NCBI RefSeq assembly: GCF_002835935.1
Contig: NZ_PJCF01000007.1
Coordinates: 1 to 64,000 of the forward strand
Source: Paraglaciecola sp. MB-3u-78
GTDB lineage: Bacteria > Pseudomonadota > Gammaproteobacteria > Enterobacterales > Alteromonadaceae
Length of the DNA: 64,000 bases
Reading direction: 5' to 3'
Shown: piece by piece, positions 16,888 to 24,872 of the stretch
How positions within the stretch are numbered: the stretch's first letter is position 1
How the letters are laid out: the number at the start of each line of letters is the position of its first letter
Translations under genes and position numbers: made by a program
Notes under the pieces: model-generated
What the model saw: only the letters and a program-made list of their open reading frames with translations
Told to the model about the DNA's origin: nothing
Databases searched by the model: none

Positions 16888-17226
16888 ATGGAATATAGTT
16901 TTGAATTTAATGGCCAACAATTGGCAGTAGATAAAGCTGGTTACTTACTCAATGTTGAAGATTGGCAAGCTGAATTAGCTCCAATTTTGGCTGCGACAGA
17001 AAATATTCAGCTAACCGATAACCACTGGGAAGTGGTGAATTTTGTGCGCTATTTTTACCTTGAATTTAATACCAGCCCTGCGATGCGAGCTTTAGTTAAA
17101 GCCATGGCCAATGAATTTGGCCCAGAAAAAGGTAATAGCCGATATCTGTTTAAGCTTTTCCCAAAAGGCCCTGCCAAACAAGCAACAAAAATTGCAGGTT
17201 TACCTAAACCTGCAAAATGTTTGTAA
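16888..17226 (+). CDS. tusE: Sulfur relay protein TusE (DsrC family)
   Basis: TusE accepts sulfur from TusD and hands it to the MnmA-tRNA complex. The 112-residue protein has the DsrC fold with [23 protein letters not shown] and [20 protein letters not shown]. The catalytic Cys111 lies in the C-terminal PKPAKCL tail, one residue from the end as in the family. In E. coli tusE is unlinked from tusBCD and next to yccA. Here all are adjacent. Confidence 0.95.
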
Positions 17227-17313: not shown

Positions 17314-17343
17314 TTAATCAATATTTTCACTTAAATTGGCTAC
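17314..17343 (+). repeat. Left direct repeat flanking the toxin-antitoxin locus
   Basis: A 30-nt sequence beginning TTAATCAATATTTTC and ending TTGGCTAC matches 18233-18262 at 26 of 30 positions in the same orientation. The two copies bracket the ParDE-like genes. Confidence 0.6.
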
Positions 17344-17433
17344 AACTCAGTACCAGCATCTGATAAAAAGTAAACTGGTTAAATTTTAACAATTATATTA
17401 AAATAATAGGTATAGTTTTAGCGAGGTAAAATT

Positions 17434-17667
17434 ATGGTCGCATTAGCACAAACAATAGATCATCTTATTGAAGAGCAAGTTCATGATGGATCAGCACATT
17501 CTGAAATTGAAGCAGAACAAATGATTATCTCAGTTGTGGCTGAACGTGTTATTGATAGAAAAATAGCAAAATCCCAAGAGCAAGTGCGTAATGGACAATA
17601 TTCAGAATTTAATGATGAATTTATGACAAACTTACTTGCTCAAGCAAAAACTCGACATAGTGTTTGA
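17434..17667 (+). CDS. ParD/RelB-like antitoxin
   Basis: This 77-residue acidic protein precedes a RelE/ParE-fold toxin gene by 27 nt. Its HSEIEAEQMIISVVAERVID region looks like a helical N-terminal DNA-binding/dimerisation part, with a C-terminal toxin-binding helix (QYSEFNDEFMTNLLAQAKTR). The order antitoxin-toxin and the small size are typical of type II modules. The subfamily (ParD versus RelB) is unclear. GAGG sits 7-8 nt before the ATG. The flanking direct repeats suggest transfer as a unit. Confidence 0.65.
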   Translation: MVALAQTIDHLIEEQVHDGSAHSEIEAEQMIISVVAERVIDRKIAKSQEQVRNGQYSEFNDEFMTNLLAQAKTRHSV

Positions 17668-17694
17668 CCTAGCGTTTAGGGCTAGTTTGTTATA

Positions 17695-18009
17695 GTGCAA
17701 TATTTTACAGTTAATATTTCTGAGGGTGCGAAACAAGATTTAGAAAACATATTTGATTATATATTCAACAATAGTAAAAATTTCAGTATAGCAAGTAACT
17801 TTGTACTAAAACTTAATAAAGCACTTGTAAAATCTTTATCATTTTCTCCAACAAAACACCCCATATATAAAAATAAAATTCGTAAGTTTATATACCCTCA
17901 AAATACAAATTATGTAGCATACTTTGAAATATTTGATGAAACAAAAGAAGTGATAATTCATATTATTACCGATACAAAACAATACACTCGGTATATGAAT
18001 TTATCGTGA
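17695..18009 (+). CDS. ParE/RelE-superfamily toxin
   Basis: The 104-residue protein has the RelE/ParE fold layout: an N-terminal beta strand (YFTVNISEGAKQDLENIFDYI, one run split as YFTVNISEGA and KQDLENIFDYI), two helices, then a beta sheet with KNKIRKFIYPQNTNYVAYFE and EVIIHIITDTKQYTRYM. Such toxins either poison gyrase (ParE) or cleave ribosome-bound mRNA (RelE). The start is GTG at 17695. It is AT-rich compared with tusE upstream. The function is inferred from fold and context. Confidence 0.7.
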   Translation: MQYFTVNISEGAKQDLENIFDYIFNNSKNFSIASNFVLKLNKALVKSLSFSPTKHPIYKNKIRKFIYPQNTNYVAYFEIFDETKEVIIHIITDTKQYTRYMNLS

Positions 18010-18181
18010 TAAATCTATTTTTAAAAGTATAGTATTTTTACTTTCTTCACCCGTTACCTTCGACTTACCCCCTGTCATAACGCAATCTAGACAGTCACGT
18101 TAATTCCCCCCCAAAAACAAACATTTTGTGTTGAAACATTAAATGCGGAAAAACCGAGGCACAGCCTCGAGAGGTTGGAAT

Positions 18182-18204
18182 TAATGAACAAAAATAGTTC
18201 ATTA
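18182..18204. repeat. Perfect inverted repeat near the toxin-antitoxin locus
   Basis: TAATGAAC (18182-18189) and GTTCATTA (18197-18204) are perfect complements around a 7-nt A-rich loop. It could be an operator or part of a hairpin with the GC-rich stem just upstream. Confidence 0.5.
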
Positions 18205-18232
18205 TTATCATGCGTGCCCTGTTAACTTACTT

Positions 18233-18262
18233 TAATCAATATTTACATTTAATTTGACTACG
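18233..18262 (+). repeat. Right direct repeat flanking the toxin-antitoxin locus
   Basis: This is the second copy of the 30-nt repeat at 17314-17343 (26 of 30 identical). It continues into CGACCCTTTT, which matches the copy at 1823-1846. Confidence 0.6.
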
Positions 18263-18552
18263 ACCCTTTTGTTTTAAACGACTCATAGGATTTCCTTATC
18301 TCTGAGTTAACCAAATATTGAGTATAGTCTATGGTTTATTTAACTTTGTTCTGACCCCGATATTTAATGATAGGCCAAGAAAGAAACTAAATTATAAAAC
18401 GCCAGCCAAATTAATGGCTGAACACATGGTGGCTATAGCCGCTTAGAGGTTATGCACTTCAAACTTGAATCTGCCCCTTAATATTTGACGGTTAATTGTC
18501 TCTTATTAAAGTGTCCGTTAAACTGTAGCAGGTTCACAACGACTCCTTTTAT

Positions 18553-20385
18553 TTACTCATCTAGCAGCTTAGTTATCTCTTTCTTCACAAAATTAAATCC
18601 TTGTTTCTCCTCTAATGCTCTTTTTAAGTACCTAGCAGATTTCCTAGGTTCATCATGTTCTAGATAAAACTTACCTATTTCAAAATTCATTCTTTGTTTG
18701 AATCGTTTTTTTGTTTTTTGATCTGATAACAAAGAAATAGCTTCGTAGTATAGTTTTACCCCCTCTTCCAAATTTCCTTTCTTGATTTTATACATGCCTA
18801 AAGTTGCTGTTGTAAAAGGATCTATATGAAAAGAATTGCTCATTAAATTAATAAATTCATCCACTTCCTCAATCAACCCGAAGTTCAAATAGGCGAATGC
18901 TAAATTGTTAACTGCTCGTTCCTTTAGGTCAGTTCTAAGACTCTTATCCTCACATTTGACTAGAAGTAAAACCTCATTTTTAACAGATAAAACAATTTTT
19001 AGATCAGGTTCTGAAGTGGTATGGAAATACAATATTCTGACTAGTAAATCCAACTTTACATTTAAATCTGCAAGGTCATCTTCTAGATATTTGATTGCTA
19101 GGTTGACAGCCTCTTTCCGATTACTATTGGCTTCTGTAAGAATCACATGTTGGAGCTTGATTTTTTCAAGCAATGCTAAAGATTCATTTTCTGGTTCTAA
19201 TAAATGCAAACAAGATTCGAATACTTTACTAAATGCCTCATGTTTTTCATTTTGAATCATCAGTCCACATAAGTTATATAAAGGCACTGCAATATTTGAA
19301 CTATTTTCTAGTGATTTTTTTAAGGAATAGTTTAAGTATTTTTCAGATGAATGAAAATCTCCCAAAGCCCACTTACATAGACCTAAATTGTTCCAAACAC
19401 CAGAAGATGAGGTGAAACTTTCTTGATGTCTCAATGCCTCTAATGCTTTTTGTAACATCACCTTATTATTTTTACGTTTTCCAACAGAGTAAAAAGCTCT
19501 AGCGTATTGTCCCCAAATATGTTCTTTTTTTTGTTCAAATTCTAAGAACTTTTCGAGTATTGGTATACATTCTTCATCCTTACCTAAAATGTGTGATACA
19601 TCCACATAAAAGCTAATGGCATTCTCATCATATGGATCTAAAACTATAGCGCGTTTTAACGATTTGTAAGCCTTACCGTGTAATCCCAACTTCCAATAAG
19701 ATGCAGCCAAATTAACTTTAGCAACTGAAGAATTAGGTTCTTCTTCTGATGCTATTTTAAATGAACGTATAGCCTTTTCTAATTCACCTTTATATAAGCA
19801 CAAAGCTCCATGAAATAGTCTCGACTTAAAATCTAAAGGGTCTATTGCCAAGGCCTGTTCTATATGAAGGCTTGCCCCGTCTAAATTTCTATTTAGCAGA
19901 TGAAAATATGCTGTACGCAAATGTGCATAACCATTACCAGAGCTAGCTATAGAATTAAAATATTTATTCGCGTCTTCTTTTAATCCCCGATTAACATAGT
20001 TATCACCTAGCTTGTTCTTAGAATAATTTGTCTCGTCTAACTCAATAGCCCTCTTAATATAGGTAAAAGCTTTTTCATTGTCGTTGGAATATTCTGCTAA
20101 ATCTGCCAAATTCAAAAGATATGTTTTTGAAATATCCTTATCATCAAATTTCTCAACCAATCTTTTAAATTCATCTTGATATTGTGATCGCAAATTGAAT
20201 ACATCATTTTGAGAGACTTCTGGAATGGATAATTTTAATTCATACCCAATTCGAAACTCAGACAATTCTTCTGCTGAGGGTATCTCAATTGCAATGGGAG
20301 AGTTTTGATCAAAAAAGATGATATCTATTGACCTTGGAACAATCTTCACATCTCTATCATTAACTTCAGACTTGGAATTTAACAT
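18553..20385 (-). CDS. TPR-repeat protein partnered with a protein kinase
   Basis: The 610-residue protein has a non-TPR N-terminal part (about 1-80, with VPRSIDIIFFDQNSP) followed by many tetratricopeptide repeats to the C-terminus. Clear repeats include NLADLAEYSNDNEKAFTYIK (about 92-111), a GALCLYKGELEKAIRSFKIA unit and FYLEHDEPRKSARYLKRALE near 578-597. No signal peptide or membrane segment is seen, so it should be a cytoplasmic scaffold. Its ATG overlaps the kinase stop by 7 bp (ATGTTAA), so the two genes are translationally coupled. The gene is visibly AT-rich compared with tusE and serS on either side, suggesting transfer. I infer that the TPR array binds the kinase or its targets. No known system is recognised with certainty. 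Confidence 0.75.
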   Translation of the reverse strand: MLNSKSEVNDRDVKIVPRSIDIIFFDQNSPIAIEIPSAEELSEFRIGYELKLSIPEVSQNDVFNLRSQYQDEFKRLVEKFDDKDISKTYLLNLADLAEYSNDNEKAFTYIKRAIELDETNYSKNKLGDNYVNRGLKEDANKYFNSIASSGNGYAHLRTAYFHLLNRNLDGASLHIEQALAIDPLDFKSRLFHGALCLYKGELEKAIRSFKIASEEEPNSSVAKVNLAASYWKLGLHGKAYKSLKRAIVLDPYDENAISFYVDVSHILGKDEECIPILEKFLEFEQKKEHIWGQYARAFYSVGKRKNNKVMLQKALEALRHQESFTSSSGVWNNLGLCKWALGDFHSSEKYLNYSLKKSLENSSNIAVPLYNLCGLMIQNEKHEAFSKVFESCLHLLEPENESLALLEKIKLQHVILTEANSNRKEAVNLAIKYLEDDLADLNVKLDLLVRILYFHTTSEPDLKIVLSVKNEVLLLVKCEDKSLRTDLKERAVNNLAFAYLNFGLIEEVDEFINLMSNSFHIDPFTTATLGMYKIKKGNLEEGVKLYYEAISLLSDQKTKKRFKQRMNFEIGKFYLEHDEPRKSARYLKRALEEKQGFNFVKKEITKLLDE

Positions 20386-21530
20386 TTTGATTCCAATCGA
20401 TTCTTCAGGGCCAAATAGTCAGTCAATTTTTTTTCTTTTAAGCAGAGTTTATTTATTCGATGTTCTCTCATAACCTTTCTTTTATGCGCACGTTGCCGAT
20501 CTAGTTTTTGGTTGGTTAATACCCTAATAGCACTGTCCACTTTTTTTAGAACAGTATCCAAATCCGACAAACGTAAATTATAATCAAAGACAGTCATGTT
20601 TCGATGCAATGTATCTAGGATATTTATTATGGAACTAGGAATCGAATGTCCGTTTCCTTCTATTTTTGGTGGTTCCAAAATATATTTAAATGGCTTCAAT
20701 TCTGAGGCCCATAACTCTTCTTTTTCTTCAAAAGACTTAACGCTTGCCATTTTTGCTTTGAGAAAGGTCAAGGATTGCAAAAAATGAACATTTTTTTCTC
20801 TAGCAATTGCAAAAATTTCGGGATTGAACAATTGATATAGTAAAGCTCCTAGAGCATAAATGTCTGTTGATTTTCCAACATTACGGTATCCAGCTAGACC
20901 GATAAGAGACTCAGGAGCAGAAAAAGCTGGAGCACCAACAGACATATCTGGATAATCTGAAGATGATGTTGCAGGAGGCATATCATAATGAGCAGCCGTA
21001 CCAAAATCTATAACAACAACTACTAAATTTCCATCTTCATCAAAACCTCTGAAATTATCAGATTTCAGGTCTCTATGTGAAATACCCTCGGAATGAAAGG
21101 AAGCTGTAGCAAGAACTGTATTTCTAAAAACATTTAGTTTTTCCAAAGCGTCATATTTGTCCTGACAAACGAAATACGGTTCAACATCAATATCCAACCA
21201 ATTGGTTACAAAGAACTTAATGGGTAAAGAACTCAAATTGCCTGCCACATCGAATGCCCAATCGAACTTAGATGGACCGTGGACTATTGCCAAACAGCGT
21301 TTTTTTCCATTTAAAAGTTTTAATATTACAGGTTCTCGTTCAAACACTGCTTGTCGATATGAATCTCCTAACAAATCAGGGTCTAAGAATTTTATCGCAA
21401 CCTTTTCTTCCTCAACAGTATCAAATGCGCTGAATACTAAGGCTGTCACTCCTTTTCTCACTCCAACATCGTGGCAATTGATACATTCAATATCACTGAA
21501 CCTGCCATCTAAAACAGCAAGCTCCTCCAA
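20379..21530 (-). CDS. Eukaryotic-type Ser/Thr protein kinase, 5' end removed by IS3
   Basis: The remaining 383 codons, numbered from a TTG at 21530, encode a kinase domain. It has the ATP-binding Lys47 (VAIKFLD), a candidate helix-C Glu64 or Glu66, the catalytic loop HRDLKSDN (152-159), DFG (175-177), APE (205-207) and the helix-F Asp223 (STDIYALG). All residues needed for catalysis are visible; a clear glycine-rich loop is not. A Lys/Arg-rich C-terminal tail follows (about 340-383). No membrane segment is seen. An IS3 element sits 16 bp upstream and has removed the original ATG and promoter. Translation could restart at this TTG, but it lacks a good ribosome-binding site. Overlap with the TPR gene marks a two-gene operon. 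Confidence 0.8.
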   Translation of the reverse strand: MEELAVLDGRFSDIECINCHDVGVRKGVTALVFSAFDTVEEEKVAIKFLDPDLLGDSYRQAVFEREPVILKLLNGKKRCLAIVHGPSKFDWAFDVAGNLSSLPIKFFVTNWLDIDVEPYFVCQDKYDALEKLNVFRNTVLATASFHSEGISHRDLKSDNFRGFDEDGNLVVVVIDFGTAAHYDMPPATSSSDYPDMSVGAPAFSAPESLIGLAGYRNVGKSTDIYALGALLYQLFNPEIFAIAREKNVHFLQSLTFLKAKMASVKSFEEKEELWASELKPFKYILEPPKIEGNGHSIPSSIINILDTLHRNMTVFDYNLRLSDLDTVLKKVDSAIRVLTNQKLDRQRAHKRKVMREHRINKLCLKEKKLTDYLALKNRLESKC

Positions 21531-21543
21531 TTGTTTAATAAGA

Positions 21544-21546
21544 TCC
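21544..21546. repeat. Target-site duplication TCC, left copy
   Basis: TCC directly before the left TIR equals TCC at 22811-22813 after the right TIR. A 3-bp duplication is usual for IS3-family elements. Confidence 0.8.
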
Positions 21547-21610
21547 TGACGTGGTTAACTAGATCCGACTACCTCAGTTAAGACATAATAAGCTTAACTG
21601 GAGATAGATA

Positions 21611-21904
21611 ATGACAGCACGTAAGAAATACTCAAAAGAATTTAAATTGGATGCCATCGCATTGGTGGTAGAGCAAAAATACAGTCGAGTCGAGGCCGCT
21701 AGGAATTTAGGCCTCAGTCCTCAGATACTCGGTCGTTGGCTCAAAGAGGCCGAAGACGATGATGGTCATGCTTTTCGAGGTAACGGCACCCTGACACCCG
21801 AACAAGCCGAAATCCGCAGCTTGAAGGGGCAAGTCAAGCGTCTCGAAATGGAGCGTGAAATATTAAAAAAAGCGACGGTCTTCTTTGCCAAAGAAACGAA
21901 GTGA
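21611..21904 (+). CDS. IS3-family transposase OrfA (HTH subunit)
   Basis: The 97-residue protein starts MTARKKYSKEFKLDAIALVV, has the RVEAARNLGLSPQILGRWLK helix-turn-helix and ends in a leucine-zipper-like segment (LKGQVKRLEMEREILKKATV). This is the standard DNA-binding half of IS3 transposases. It overlaps orfB by 4 bp. The run of seven A at 21865-21871 allows -1 frameshifting to make the OrfAB transposase. Confidence 0.92.
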   Translation: MTARKKYSKEFKLDAIALVVEQKYSRVEAARNLGLSPQILGRWLKEAEDDDGHAFRGNGTLTPEQAEIRSLKGQVKRLEMEREILKKATVFFAKETK

Positions 21905-22779
21905 AGTATTCGTTTATTACCCGATATAAGAAGACCTGGCCTGTGCGCTTAATGTGCAGGCTGCTCGGTGTACAAAGTAACAATTATTACAGTTATCAGA
22001 AGCGTCAAACGAATAAACCTGATGATCTAACGCATCAAGAGATGCTGGAATGGGTAAAGGATATCGCCAAGTTCAGCGATAATACCTATGGCGAACGACG
22101 CATTCAAAAAGTATTGAATGCGCTGAGCTTTCCTGTGAGTCGCAGGAAAACAGCCCAATTGATGAAAGAAGCAGGCGTGTGGGTGCGGTATAAAAAGAAA
22201 TATAAAGCCACCACCAACAGTGACCATAAAAAGCCTATTTATGACAATGTACTTAAGCAAGACTTTGTAGCACAAAAGCCTGACCAAGCTTATGTGCAAG
22301 ATATCACCTACGTTTGGACATCAGAAGGCTGGTTGTATTTAGCTGTGGTGATTGATTTATATTCACGCAAAGTCGTGGGTTGGAGTATGAGTTCAAGAAT
22401 GAAGGCCAGTTTAGTCTGTGACGCATTAACCATGGCGATATGGCAACGACAACCGAAAGCAGGATTGATTGTGCATTCAGATCAAGGCGTACAGTACGCC
22501 AGCAAAGCTTATCGACGCCTTATAAAGACATATGGTTTTGTAGGGAGCATGAGTAAAAAAGGATGTTGCTGGGACAATGCTGTAGCAGAAAGTTTCTTTG
22601 GAAGCCTAAAACAAGAGCGGGTGCATTGGCGCAATTACTCAACACGATTTAGCGCCCAACAAGATATATTGAATTACATGACCATGTGGTACAACAGCCA
22701 TAGACTTCATTCGTACTTGGATTACCAAAGTCCTAATGACTTTGAAAGAGAAAACAATGAATTACAAAAAGTAGCTTAA
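21901..22779 (+). CDS. IS3-family transposase OrfB (DDE integrase core)
   Basis: The 292-residue protein carries an N-terminal HTH_21-like segment (DNTYGERRIQKVLN) and the rve integrase core with DDE residues in QDITYVWTSEGWLYLAVVID, VHSDQGVQYAS and AVAESFFGSLKQE. The independent start is GTG at 21901. The frame is also open back to the slippery site, so the active product is probably an OrfAB fusion. No disabling mutation is seen. Confidence 0.93.
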   Translation: MKYSFITRYKKTWPVRLMCRLLGVQSNNYYSYQKRQTNKPDDLTHQEMLEWVKDIAKFSDNTYGERRIQKVLNALSFPVSRRKTAQLMKEAGVWVRYKKKYKATTNSDHKKPIYDNVLKQDFVAQKPDQAYVQDITYVWTSEGWLYLAVVIDLYSRKVVGWSMSSRMKASLVCDALTMAIWQRQPKAGLIVHSDQGVQYASKAYRRLIKTYGFVGSMSKKGCCWDNAVAESFFGSLKQERVHWRNYSTRFSAQQDILNYMTMWYNSHRLHSYLDYQSPNDFERENNELQKVA

Positions 22780-22810
22780 CTAAGGTGGTCGTATTAGGTT
22801 GACCACGTCA

Positions 22811-22836
22811 TCCTGTTGATTGGTACTTCTAGACAT
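22811..22836 (-). pseudogene. Severed 5' end of the kinase gene
   Basis: On the minus strand an ATG at 22836 begins ATG TCT AGA AGT ACC AAT CAA CAG GA, which runs to the IS boundary. Deleting the IS and one TCC copy joins it in frame to GAT CTT ATT AAA CAA TTG GAG of the kinase. The restored protein starts MSRSTNQQDLIKQLEELAVL. A TGGA stands 6-8 nt before the ATG. Confidence 0.75.
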
Positions 22837-22934: not shown

Positions 22935-23015
22935 TCAGCGTCACTGATGCTTTTAAGCATTTGACATACCCTCGACTCAAAGCTCGCCAACTATTACTTC
23001 AATTTAGTAGGGTAA
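22935..23015 (+). repeat. Dispersed structured repeat, copy A
   Basis: A hairpin TCAG-CGTCA-CTGA (22935-22947) is followed by a second, ATGCTT/AAGCAT, and then the core 22967-23015. The core opens TACCCTCGACTCAAAGCTCG and closes with TTTAGTAGGGTAA. TACCCT and AGGGTA at the core ends are complementary. Confidence 0.65.
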
Positions 23016-23147
23016 TCGCCATGGACAGGCAATTGAGCGGTGCGCCGTCTGGAAAACGCTATCGGGACACTCACGATAACTTAGCGCTAATTGTCAGCTT
23101 AAATTAACAACAAATCCATATTCATTAATTGCGAAGCAATATCTTAG

Positions 23148-23220
23148 TCGGCAACGCCGATGCTTTTGACTTACCCTCGACTGAATGCTCGCCGGTTATT
23201 TTGTGAATTCAGTAGGGTAA
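23148..23220 (+). repeat. Dispersed structured repeat, copy B
   Basis: A hairpin TCGGC-AAC-GCCGA (23148-23160) precedes the core 23172-23220, which opens TACCCTCGACTGAATGCTCG and closes with TTCAGTAGGGTAA. It runs directly into the first GC-rich palindrome at 23219. Confidence 0.65.
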
Positions 23221-23253
23221 TTGGCATGCGGACGCCGCGCGGGATAGCCAATT
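23219..23253. repeat. GC-rich palindromic repeat, copy 1
   Basis: A 21-nt core (23225-23245; CATGCGGACGCC then GCGCGGGAT) is enclosed by AATTGGC and GCCAATT arms. The identical core recurs at 23406-23426. Confidence 0.65.
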
Positions 23254-23402
23254 AAGTGATGTACCGCCGGGAGCGGATCATCACGACCTGCTTAATTTGC
23301 AAAATTACCGGATGAAGAGCATTGCCCTCGAGCGGCCTTTTTTGCCTACTTTTTTTGGCTGTAGCAAAAAAGTAGGTTGGACGAAGGGATGCGTTTGAAA
23401 AA

Positions 23403-23430
23403 TGTCATGCGGACGCCGCGCGGGATGACA
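23403..23430. repeat. GC-rich palindromic repeat, copy 2
   Basis: The same 21-nt core (23406-23426) is enclosed by different complementary arms, TGTCAT and ATGACA. The change of both arms together keeps the stem. A further small hairpin (TATGCGAAGCATA) follows. Confidence 0.65.

Positions 23431-23576: not shown

Positions 23577-24872
<1,296 letters not shown>

What the first reader, a model, noticed from the sequence alone, without database searches (positions are those of the whole stretch)
18553..22836. Two-gene protein kinase-TPR unit in an AT-rich island
A eukaryotic-type kinase with all catalytic residues (Lys47, HRDLKSDN, DFG, APE) overlaps a 610-residue TPR protein by 7 bp, so the two are made together. 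They sit between core genes (tusE, serS), next to a toxin-antitoxin pair, an IS and repeats. That setting is common for defence or regulatory cargo. Neither protein has membrane segments, unlike the usual PASTA or sensor kinases. I know no named system with this exact pair; a stress or anti-phage role is inference only.
Basis: partly seen in the sequence, partly recalled or inferred. Interest (0 to 1): 0.75.

Follow-up and report, generated by a model that had tools for sequence, protein, structure and literature searches.

The report
Mobile kinase–TPR pair, candidate phage defence
Two joined bacterial genes, a protein kinase and a repeat-rich partner protein, form a rare mobile pair that probably guards cells against viruses, although in this particular genome a jumping gene has landed in the start of the kinase gene.

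Summary
The pair is real: a 383-codon Ser/Thr-type kinase frame and a 610-residue TPR protein overlap by 7 bp in an AT-rich stretch between tusE and serS. It is conserved as a unit: in the three settings that could be read (window, a Pseudomonadales chromosome, a prophage) the kinase is directly followed by the same kind of TPR protein. The family is rare: no family-level kinase match in 21 congeners; only the window's own in samples of 369 class and 398 phylum genomes. The tusE–serS gap is a cargo site in this genus; congeners carry Dsr1, HipA, an effector-like gene or the same toxin–antitoxin pair there, but as often a metabolic cassette. The TPR C-terminus matches PADLOC's untested candidate PDC-M71B specifically (controls nine orders weaker), and PDC-M71 has the same gene order; the rest of the TPR protein and the kinase do not match, so this is a relative, not a member. 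Best reading: a TPR-gated kinase acting in phage defence (function inferred). Correction: an IS3-type element, one of eight copies listed at 100% identity in this genome, cuts the first codons off the kinase gene, so this copy may be impaired.

The parts
18553..20385 (-). TPR protein, 610 aa: low-confidence N-terminus with two short strands (about 1-65), TPR superhelix, C-terminal module 485-610 shared with PDC-M71B
   Evidence: (model pLDDT 85)
20379..21530 (-). Ser/Thr-type protein kinase reading frame, 383 aa from a TTG; full catalytic set; 59-residue basic C-terminal helix
   Evidence: (pLDDT 89)
22811..22836 (-). detached first codons of the kinase gene, beyond the IS (3-bp duplication 22811-22813)
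   Evidence: read by eye against the relatives' N-termini
21547..22810 (+). IS3-family element (orfA 21611-21904, orfB 21901-22779) inserted in the 5' end of the kinase gene; eight copies listed at 100% in the genome
17434..18009 (+). toxin-antitoxin-like pair (77-aa ORF without family match, ParE-type toxin 17695-18009) in the same cargo site; about 96-97% identical in two congeners with other cargo
17314..18264 (+). 33-bp direct repeats (17314-17346, 18232-18264; 85%) bracketing the toxin-antitoxin pair
   Evidence: a 95% match to G001 spans 17327-18228
16888..17226 (+). tusE, left core flank of the cargo site
23577..24866 (-). serS, right core flank of the cargo site

Best explanation
A mobile two-gene conflict module, most likely anti-phage. 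The two proteins are made together and probably bind each other. The kinase is the effector: a soluble, catalytically complete Ser/Thr-type kinase with a long basic C-terminal helix. The TPR superhelix is the regulator and sensor: it holds the kinase (plausibly through that helix) in an inactive state, and a phage product or infection-caused change releases it, so that the kinase phosphorylates host proteins and stops growth before phage matures. Shown here: the conserved pair, intact catalytic residues, the basic tail, mobile setting, the TPR C-terminal module shared with PDC-M71B. Inferred: complex formation, gating, trigger, targets and anti-phage effect.
For: Pairing in 3 of 3 readable settings (window; L006, 8-bp overlap; L092, 3-bp gap), and a fourth pair (P0002/P0026) inferred from equal contig length 10537. 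Catalytic residues kept across the family alignment. Basic tail in 19 of 21 aligned kinases, K+R 14-26 against D+E 5-12 (weakest P0006, 14 against 12); P0008 and P0021 are short there. Prophage cargo near an AriA/GajA/Old-like ATPase. tusE-serS site: Dsr1 at 9.4e-85 in G001, HipA 3.3e-38 in G021, effector-like gene (PDC-M68A 1.9e-21) in G019. Patchy distribution. TPR C-terminus against PDC-M71B 2.0e-15, best control 2.3e-6. Precedent: KKP, a prophage kinase module that blocks lytic phage through kinase toxicity (abstract of PMC11341870).
Against: No functional data. Of six tusE-serS sites with cargo and both flanks seen, three carry a metabolic cassette and two carry defence or toxin-antitoxin genes, so the site is not defence-specific, and no control site was counted. 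L006 sits alone between core metabolic genes. Direct BLASTP of the window TPR protein with a true PDC-M71B finds nothing significant (E 3.8); the protein search with that PDC-M71B returned no member of this family (10 proteins). The kinase is no closer to PDC-M71A than to other kinases. PDC-M71 is itself unvalidated. The ATPase in L092 matches 134 PADLOC families, so its type is not specific. The window copy is interrupted by an IS.
Confidence: 0.58

Rival explanations
1. A toxin-antitoxin or prophage-control module: the kinase is toxic, the TPR protein is its antidote, and the pair stabilises mobile DNA or controls lysogeny without being selected as phage defence.
For: Probable co-translation, prophage cargo position, toxin-antitoxin and HipA genes at the same chromosomal site in congeners; KKP is described as both a toxin-antitoxin system and a prophage regulator (abstract).
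Against: Typical antidotes are small (recalled), while this partner is 610 residues with a sensor-like superhelix; the shared C-terminus is with a defence candidate.
Confidence: 0.2
2. An ordinary cytosolic signalling kinase with a TPR scaffold (stress or metabolic regulation) that happens to be spread by horizontal transfer.
For: Kinase and TPR also occur together in other ways, for example in one frame in L011; L006 lies between metabolic genes; metabolic cassettes use the same cargo site.
Against: No family-level match in the 21 congeners searched, found in a prophage, very rare in class and phylum samples.
Confidence: 0.15
3. In this strain the pair is a decaying remnant: the IS has separated the kinase gene from its start and promoter, and nothing functional is made.
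For: IS inside the gene; eight copies listed at 100% in the genome, so recent.
Against: Both frames are otherwise open and a TTG start exists; IS3-type elements can drive outward transcription (recalled). This rival concerns this copy only, not the family.
Confidence: 0.07

Closest known systems
PDC-M71 (PADLOC phage-defence candidate; A kinase, B TPR)
   Same: Kinase gene directly upstream of TPR gene (8-bp overlap in L098, 2-bp gap in L157); related C-terminal module of the TPR protein
   Different: The first about 480 residues of the TPR protein align only as generic TPR; the kinase lacks specific similarity, and the two PDC-M71A examples read have HQD for HRD and no strongly basic tail
PD-T4-6 (single-gene kinase defence)
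   Same: Best PADLOC kinase model for the window kinase, 1.3e-21
   Different: Similarity covers only the catalytic domain; no TPR partner (single-gene nature recalled)
KKP kinase-kinase-phosphatase module
   Same: Prophage-borne Ser/Thr kinase module with antiphage effect through kinase toxicity (abstract)
   Different: Two kinases and a phosphatase; the abstract names no TPR protein
Stk2 and HipA-type kinases
   Same: Kinases used in phage defence or growth arrest (Stk2 model hit 7.8e-9; HipA-related DS-6 in PMC13092281, passages)
   Different: Stk2 is far down the list; HipA is another kinase family with a different partner (recalled)
PknG and other kinase-TPR fusions (recalled)
   Same: A kinase working with TPR repeats
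   Different: Fused in one chain (recalled)

Membership tests
PDC-M71 | Kinase gene followed directly by TPR gene on one strand | tested here: met
PDC-M71 | TPR protein matches PDC-M71B over its length | tested here: not met
   Only residues 492-608 match (1.2e-12, profile 386-509 of 515), against 4.3e-88 over profile 1-498 for a true member; BLASTP to that member not significant
PDC-M71 | C-terminal module of PDC-M71B, beyond generic TPR | tested here: met
   2.0e-15, score 90 against best control 2.3e-6, score 40; C-terminal hit in 4 of 4 family TPR proteins scanned
PDC-M71 | Kinase closest to PDC-M71A | tested here: not met
   PDC-M71A 2.8e-8 is far below PD-T4-6 at 1.3e-21; a true member scores 6e-67
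PDC-M71 | Embedded in a known defence system | tested here: inconclusive
   No defence genes recognised around L006 or the window pair by reading; near an AriA/GajA/Old-like ATPase in prophage L092
PD-T4-6 | Full-length match to a PD-T4-6 kinase model | tested here: inconclusive
   17-209 of 292 positions, catalytic domain only
PD-T4-6 | Acts as a single gene | not testable with these tools
   Partner gene present in 3 of 3 readable settings; single-gene action is recalled
KKP | Second kinase and a phosphatase gene | tested here: not met
   None among the neighbours scanned with Pfam in the window and L092; L006 neighbours only read by eye
Eukaryotic-type Ser/Thr kinase (Pkinase) | Catalytic Lys, alphaC Glu, HRD Asp, Asn, DFG Asp | tested here: met
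   (assignment of the alphaC Glu to E69 of P0001 is by its place, not by structure)
PASTA/PknB sensor kinases | Membrane segment and PASTA repeats | tested here: not met
   Only Pkinase found by Pfam, PknB model 47.5 bits against a cut-off of 450, no hydrophobic segment

The most novel reading that the evidence does not exclude
This family and PDC-M71 are two old branches of one unrecognised class of immunity in which a TPR superhelix with a dedicated C-terminal module is a phage sensor that holds and releases a separate soluble kinase. The kinase half is exchangeable between branches, while the TPR C-terminus is the conserved coupling part.
Probability: 0.3. Interest if true: 0.7.

Novelty: new variant of a known kind. 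Interest (0 to 1): 0.5.

Why it matters
Kinases are a small but growing group of phage-defence effectors, and the best-known ones act alone or with a phosphatase (recalled, and KKP). A conserved kinase plus a separate TPR regulator, found in a prophage and in a chromosomal cargo site that congeners also use for Dsr1 and HipA, would be a sensor-effector split in which trigger and targets can be studied separately. It also gives the untested candidate PDC-M71 a distant cousin and a defined module to test, and it marks tusE-serS as a place to look for further cargo in this genus.

Tried and rejected
The viral-contig scan with the TPR alignment confirmed no relative (it did not return L092 either, which the kinase scan found, so that scan is not exhaustive). 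tblastn of the TPR protein found nothing in the plasmid and phage collections; the kinase was run against plasmids only, and its 6 hits are generic, covering 61% of the query or less. Whole-protein profile comparison is no proof of kinship to PDC-M71B: generic TPR families score as well or better (A5 4.5e-20, A4 1.4e-14, A3 1e-14); only the C-terminal piece discriminates. BLASTP of window and PDC-M71B TPR proteins is not significant; the kinases align at 1e-8 over 117 residues, as kinases do. The N-terminal pieces of the two TPR families do not align (probability 0.1), so a resemblance seen there by eye was dropped. Foldseek against PDB gave only kinases and TPR-type superhelices of generic kind in the 50 rows shown. 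Literature: a search for 'PDC-M71' found 0 papers; searches listed no title or abstract start on such a pair, but most listed papers were not opened (opened: passages of PMC13092281 and PMC12988326, outline and abstract of PMC11341870); the library holds no bioRxiv preprints. Complex prediction was not possible with the monomer tool. Genus and species of the window were not determined.
Full report
OBSERVATION. The window holds two long frames on the minus strand, 20379-21530 (383 codons from a TTG) and 18553-20385 (610 codons from an ATG), overlapping by 7 bp. Pfam gives Pkinase (4.4e-18) for the first and a set of TPR models for the second. The catalytic lysine, HRDLKSDN, DFG and SAPE are present; in an alignment of 21 sequences, own included, the lysine, a glutamate at the alphaC place, HRD, the asparagine and the DFG aspartate are invariant. 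Neither protein has a hydrophobic segment. The stretch is AT-rich (GC 0.32-0.34; third-position GC 0.26-0.27 against 0.33-0.37 for serS, rarA, ftsK and the gene before the tus genes, though tusE itself is 0.29).

CORRECTION. The IS3-family element lies inside the kinase gene. Eight full-length copies listed at 100% identity, the window's own among them, share one stretch, which here is 21547-22810; the ends are inverted repeats and a 3-bp duplication flanks them. Of 20 aligned relatives all but P0021 start 9-15 residues before the window's TTG, and the beginning of the gene is on the far side of the element, up to 22836. The catalytic domain is untouched, but this copy has lost its native start and promoter side, recently, since the IS copies are alike. 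Whether it is still expressed is unknown.

THE FAMILY. A search of about 5.8 billion proteins gave 24 kinases, of which P0001 is the window's own and 19 others (P0002-P0020) align over at least 86% of the query at 36-64% identity. The TPR search gave 41 proteins; P0025 is the window's own, P0026-P0034 (9) are clear relatives (E 2.9e-62 or better), the next is 3.1e-10. Organism names, where given among these relatives, are Sedimenticola, Thiodiazotropha and an uncultured Undibacterium. In whole genomes the family is rare: at E 1e-40 only the window genome itself among 369 drawn from its class and among 398 from its phylum; in those two calls at most five and four candidates per genome were scored, so a member could have been missed. 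In the genus, where every candidate was scored, two of 21 other genomes reach 1e-21, but with kinases in 888-908-aa frames at 76-77 bits against 549 for the window's, so none has a family-level match.

PAIRING. Beside the window, two loci could be read. L006 (uncultured Pseudomonadales chromosome) has the kinase (402 aa) and TPR gene (612 aa) overlapping by 8 bp, alone between metabolic genes. L092 is an IMG/VR contig with integrase, primase, regulator and tail genes (GPD-like hub, tape measure); the pair (388 and 615 aa, 3 bp apart) lies between the replication and tail blocks. In the same gap, about 2.6 kb further on, is a 504-aa AAA ATPase that matches 134 PADLOC families, best AriA, NsnB and HEC-01A, then GajA and Old among others. 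In a scan of frames of 80 aa or more in the 121 loci then held, the three highest-scoring distinct kinases (549, 356, 347 bits) were those followed by a family TPR gene (643, 468, 266 bits); the next kinase scored 101 bits, and other TPR hits were weak (L010 40, L011 28, L021 27, L098 27 bits). Identities among the four pairs are 64/63% (kinase/TPR) for the closest and 29-35/22-26% for the rest.

CARGO SITE. Nineteen tusE regions were fetched from 21 congeners (G012 and G017 were left out). serS was found in 16. In 10 of 16, tusE and serS are 25-331 bp apart; in 6 of 16, 3.6-10.2 kb lies between them (in L129 serS is seen only as a 57-residue match, so that site may be rearranged); in the other 3 no serS was found on the piece held. 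Contents: G001/L125, the same toxin-antitoxin pair (antitoxin 96%; toxin 97-100% but matched in two frames, so probably frameshifted) plus a 1266-aa SIR2 protein matching Dsr1 at 9.4e-85; G019/L126, the same pair (96%), a weakly RelE-like ORF with an HTH ORF, and a 387-aa protein without Pfam match that hits PDC-M68A (1.9e-21) and CBASS endonuclease effectors (1.4e-17; that 'Effector' means CBASS is recalled); L127, L128 and L131, a metabolic cassette; L129, other genes. Of the three without serS, L123 (G021) has HipA (3.3e-38) and an HTH protein beside tusE, L124 mostly unknown ORFs, and L133 ends just after tusE. So it is a variable cargo site, with defence or toxin-antitoxin genes in 2 of 6 fully seen occupied sites and 1 of 3 partly seen ones, and a metabolic cassette in 3 of 6. 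No statistical comparison with other sites was made.

RELATION TO PDC-M71. PADLOC's only hit for the TPR protein is PDC-M71B, residues 492-608 against 386-509 of 515, 1.2e-12, and the C-terminus is likewise hit in P0026, L092 and L006. Two true PDC-M71 systems (L098, Arenicella xantha by the name on P0066; L157, unnamed) show kinase then TPR gene, 8-bp overlap and 2-bp gap. With profiles, the window family's C-terminal 126 residues match the PDC-M71B C-terminus at 2.0e-15 (score 90), while the best of 31 and 38 windows from two other TPR families is 2.3e-6 and 6.3e-6 and the best of 18 windows from the family's own earlier repeats is 3.6e-5. The rest is not specific: direct BLASTP of the TPR proteins is not significant, the search with PDC-M71B returned no member of this family among 10 proteins, whole-length profile comparison is no better than to other TPR proteins, N-termini do not align, and the kinase prefers PD-T4-6 (1.3e-21) and MAD6 (2.2e-17) to PDC-M71A (2.8e-8). 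In the two PDC-M71A examples the HRD arginine is a glutamine and the last 60 residues are not strongly basic. So the pair is a relative of PDC-M71, not a member. PDCs are putative candidates from a 'guilt-by-embedding' approach, mostly untested (passages of PMC12988326).

STRUCTURE. The kinase model (pLDDT 89, pTM 0.86) finds kinases in the PDB, has its weakest stretches around residues 21-30 and 181-220 (activation-loop side) and ends in one helix, residues 327-385. That tail is basic (K+R 14-26, D+E 5-12; weakest 14 against 12) in 19 of 21 aligned members; P0008 and P0021 are short there. The TPR model (pLDDT 85, pTM 0.72) is a continuous helical array from about residue 66, with a poorly predicted N-terminus holding two short strands; its PDB neighbours are generic TPR-type proteins.

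MECHANISM. Most likely the TPR protein holds the kinase and senses infection, and the kinase is the effector. The closest studied analogy is KKP, in which a phage replication protein inhibits the phosphatase and so releases toxic kinase activity (abstract of PMC11341870). The basic helix is a natural docking part for the superhelix. All of this beyond sequence and context is inference.

VERDICT. Real, conserved, mobile, rare, and related at one end to an untested defence candidate; function unproven, and this copy interrupted. New variant of a known kind.

Noticed in passing
window 17314-17346 and 18232-18264: 33-bp direct repeats (85%) bracket the toxin-antitoxin pair; in G001 the block 17327-18228 is 95% identical while the tusE flank is 81%, so the pair may be a small cassette that moves by itself; in G019 the match runs through at 88% without such a step.
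   Followed up: partly
L125 7002-10802: A Dsr1-like SIR2 gene (1266 aa, 9.4e-85) occupies the tusE-serS site of a congener, next to the same toxin-antitoxin pair, whose toxin is matched in two frames there.
   Followed up: yes
L125 5651-6451: A second, partial serS copy (83.5% identical to the intact one) lies beside the cargo, as if cargo had been exchanged together with a serS end.
   Followed up: no
window 22957-23426 and L125 5335-5521, 12089-12313: Repeats between kinase gene and serS recur beside both ends of the cargo in L125, in opposite orientation.
   Followed up: no
L122 11425-12399 and L124 3741-4076: ORFs that look like REP-associated transposases (label recalled, not searched) lie next to the PDC-M71 pair of Arenicella and beside tusE in a congener.
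   Followed up: no
L127, L128, L131 between serS and tusE: A shared cassette with a xylose-isomerase-like protein (Pfam hit in L127) and what looks like an oxidoreductase (read by eye) fills the same site in three congeners.
   Followed up: no
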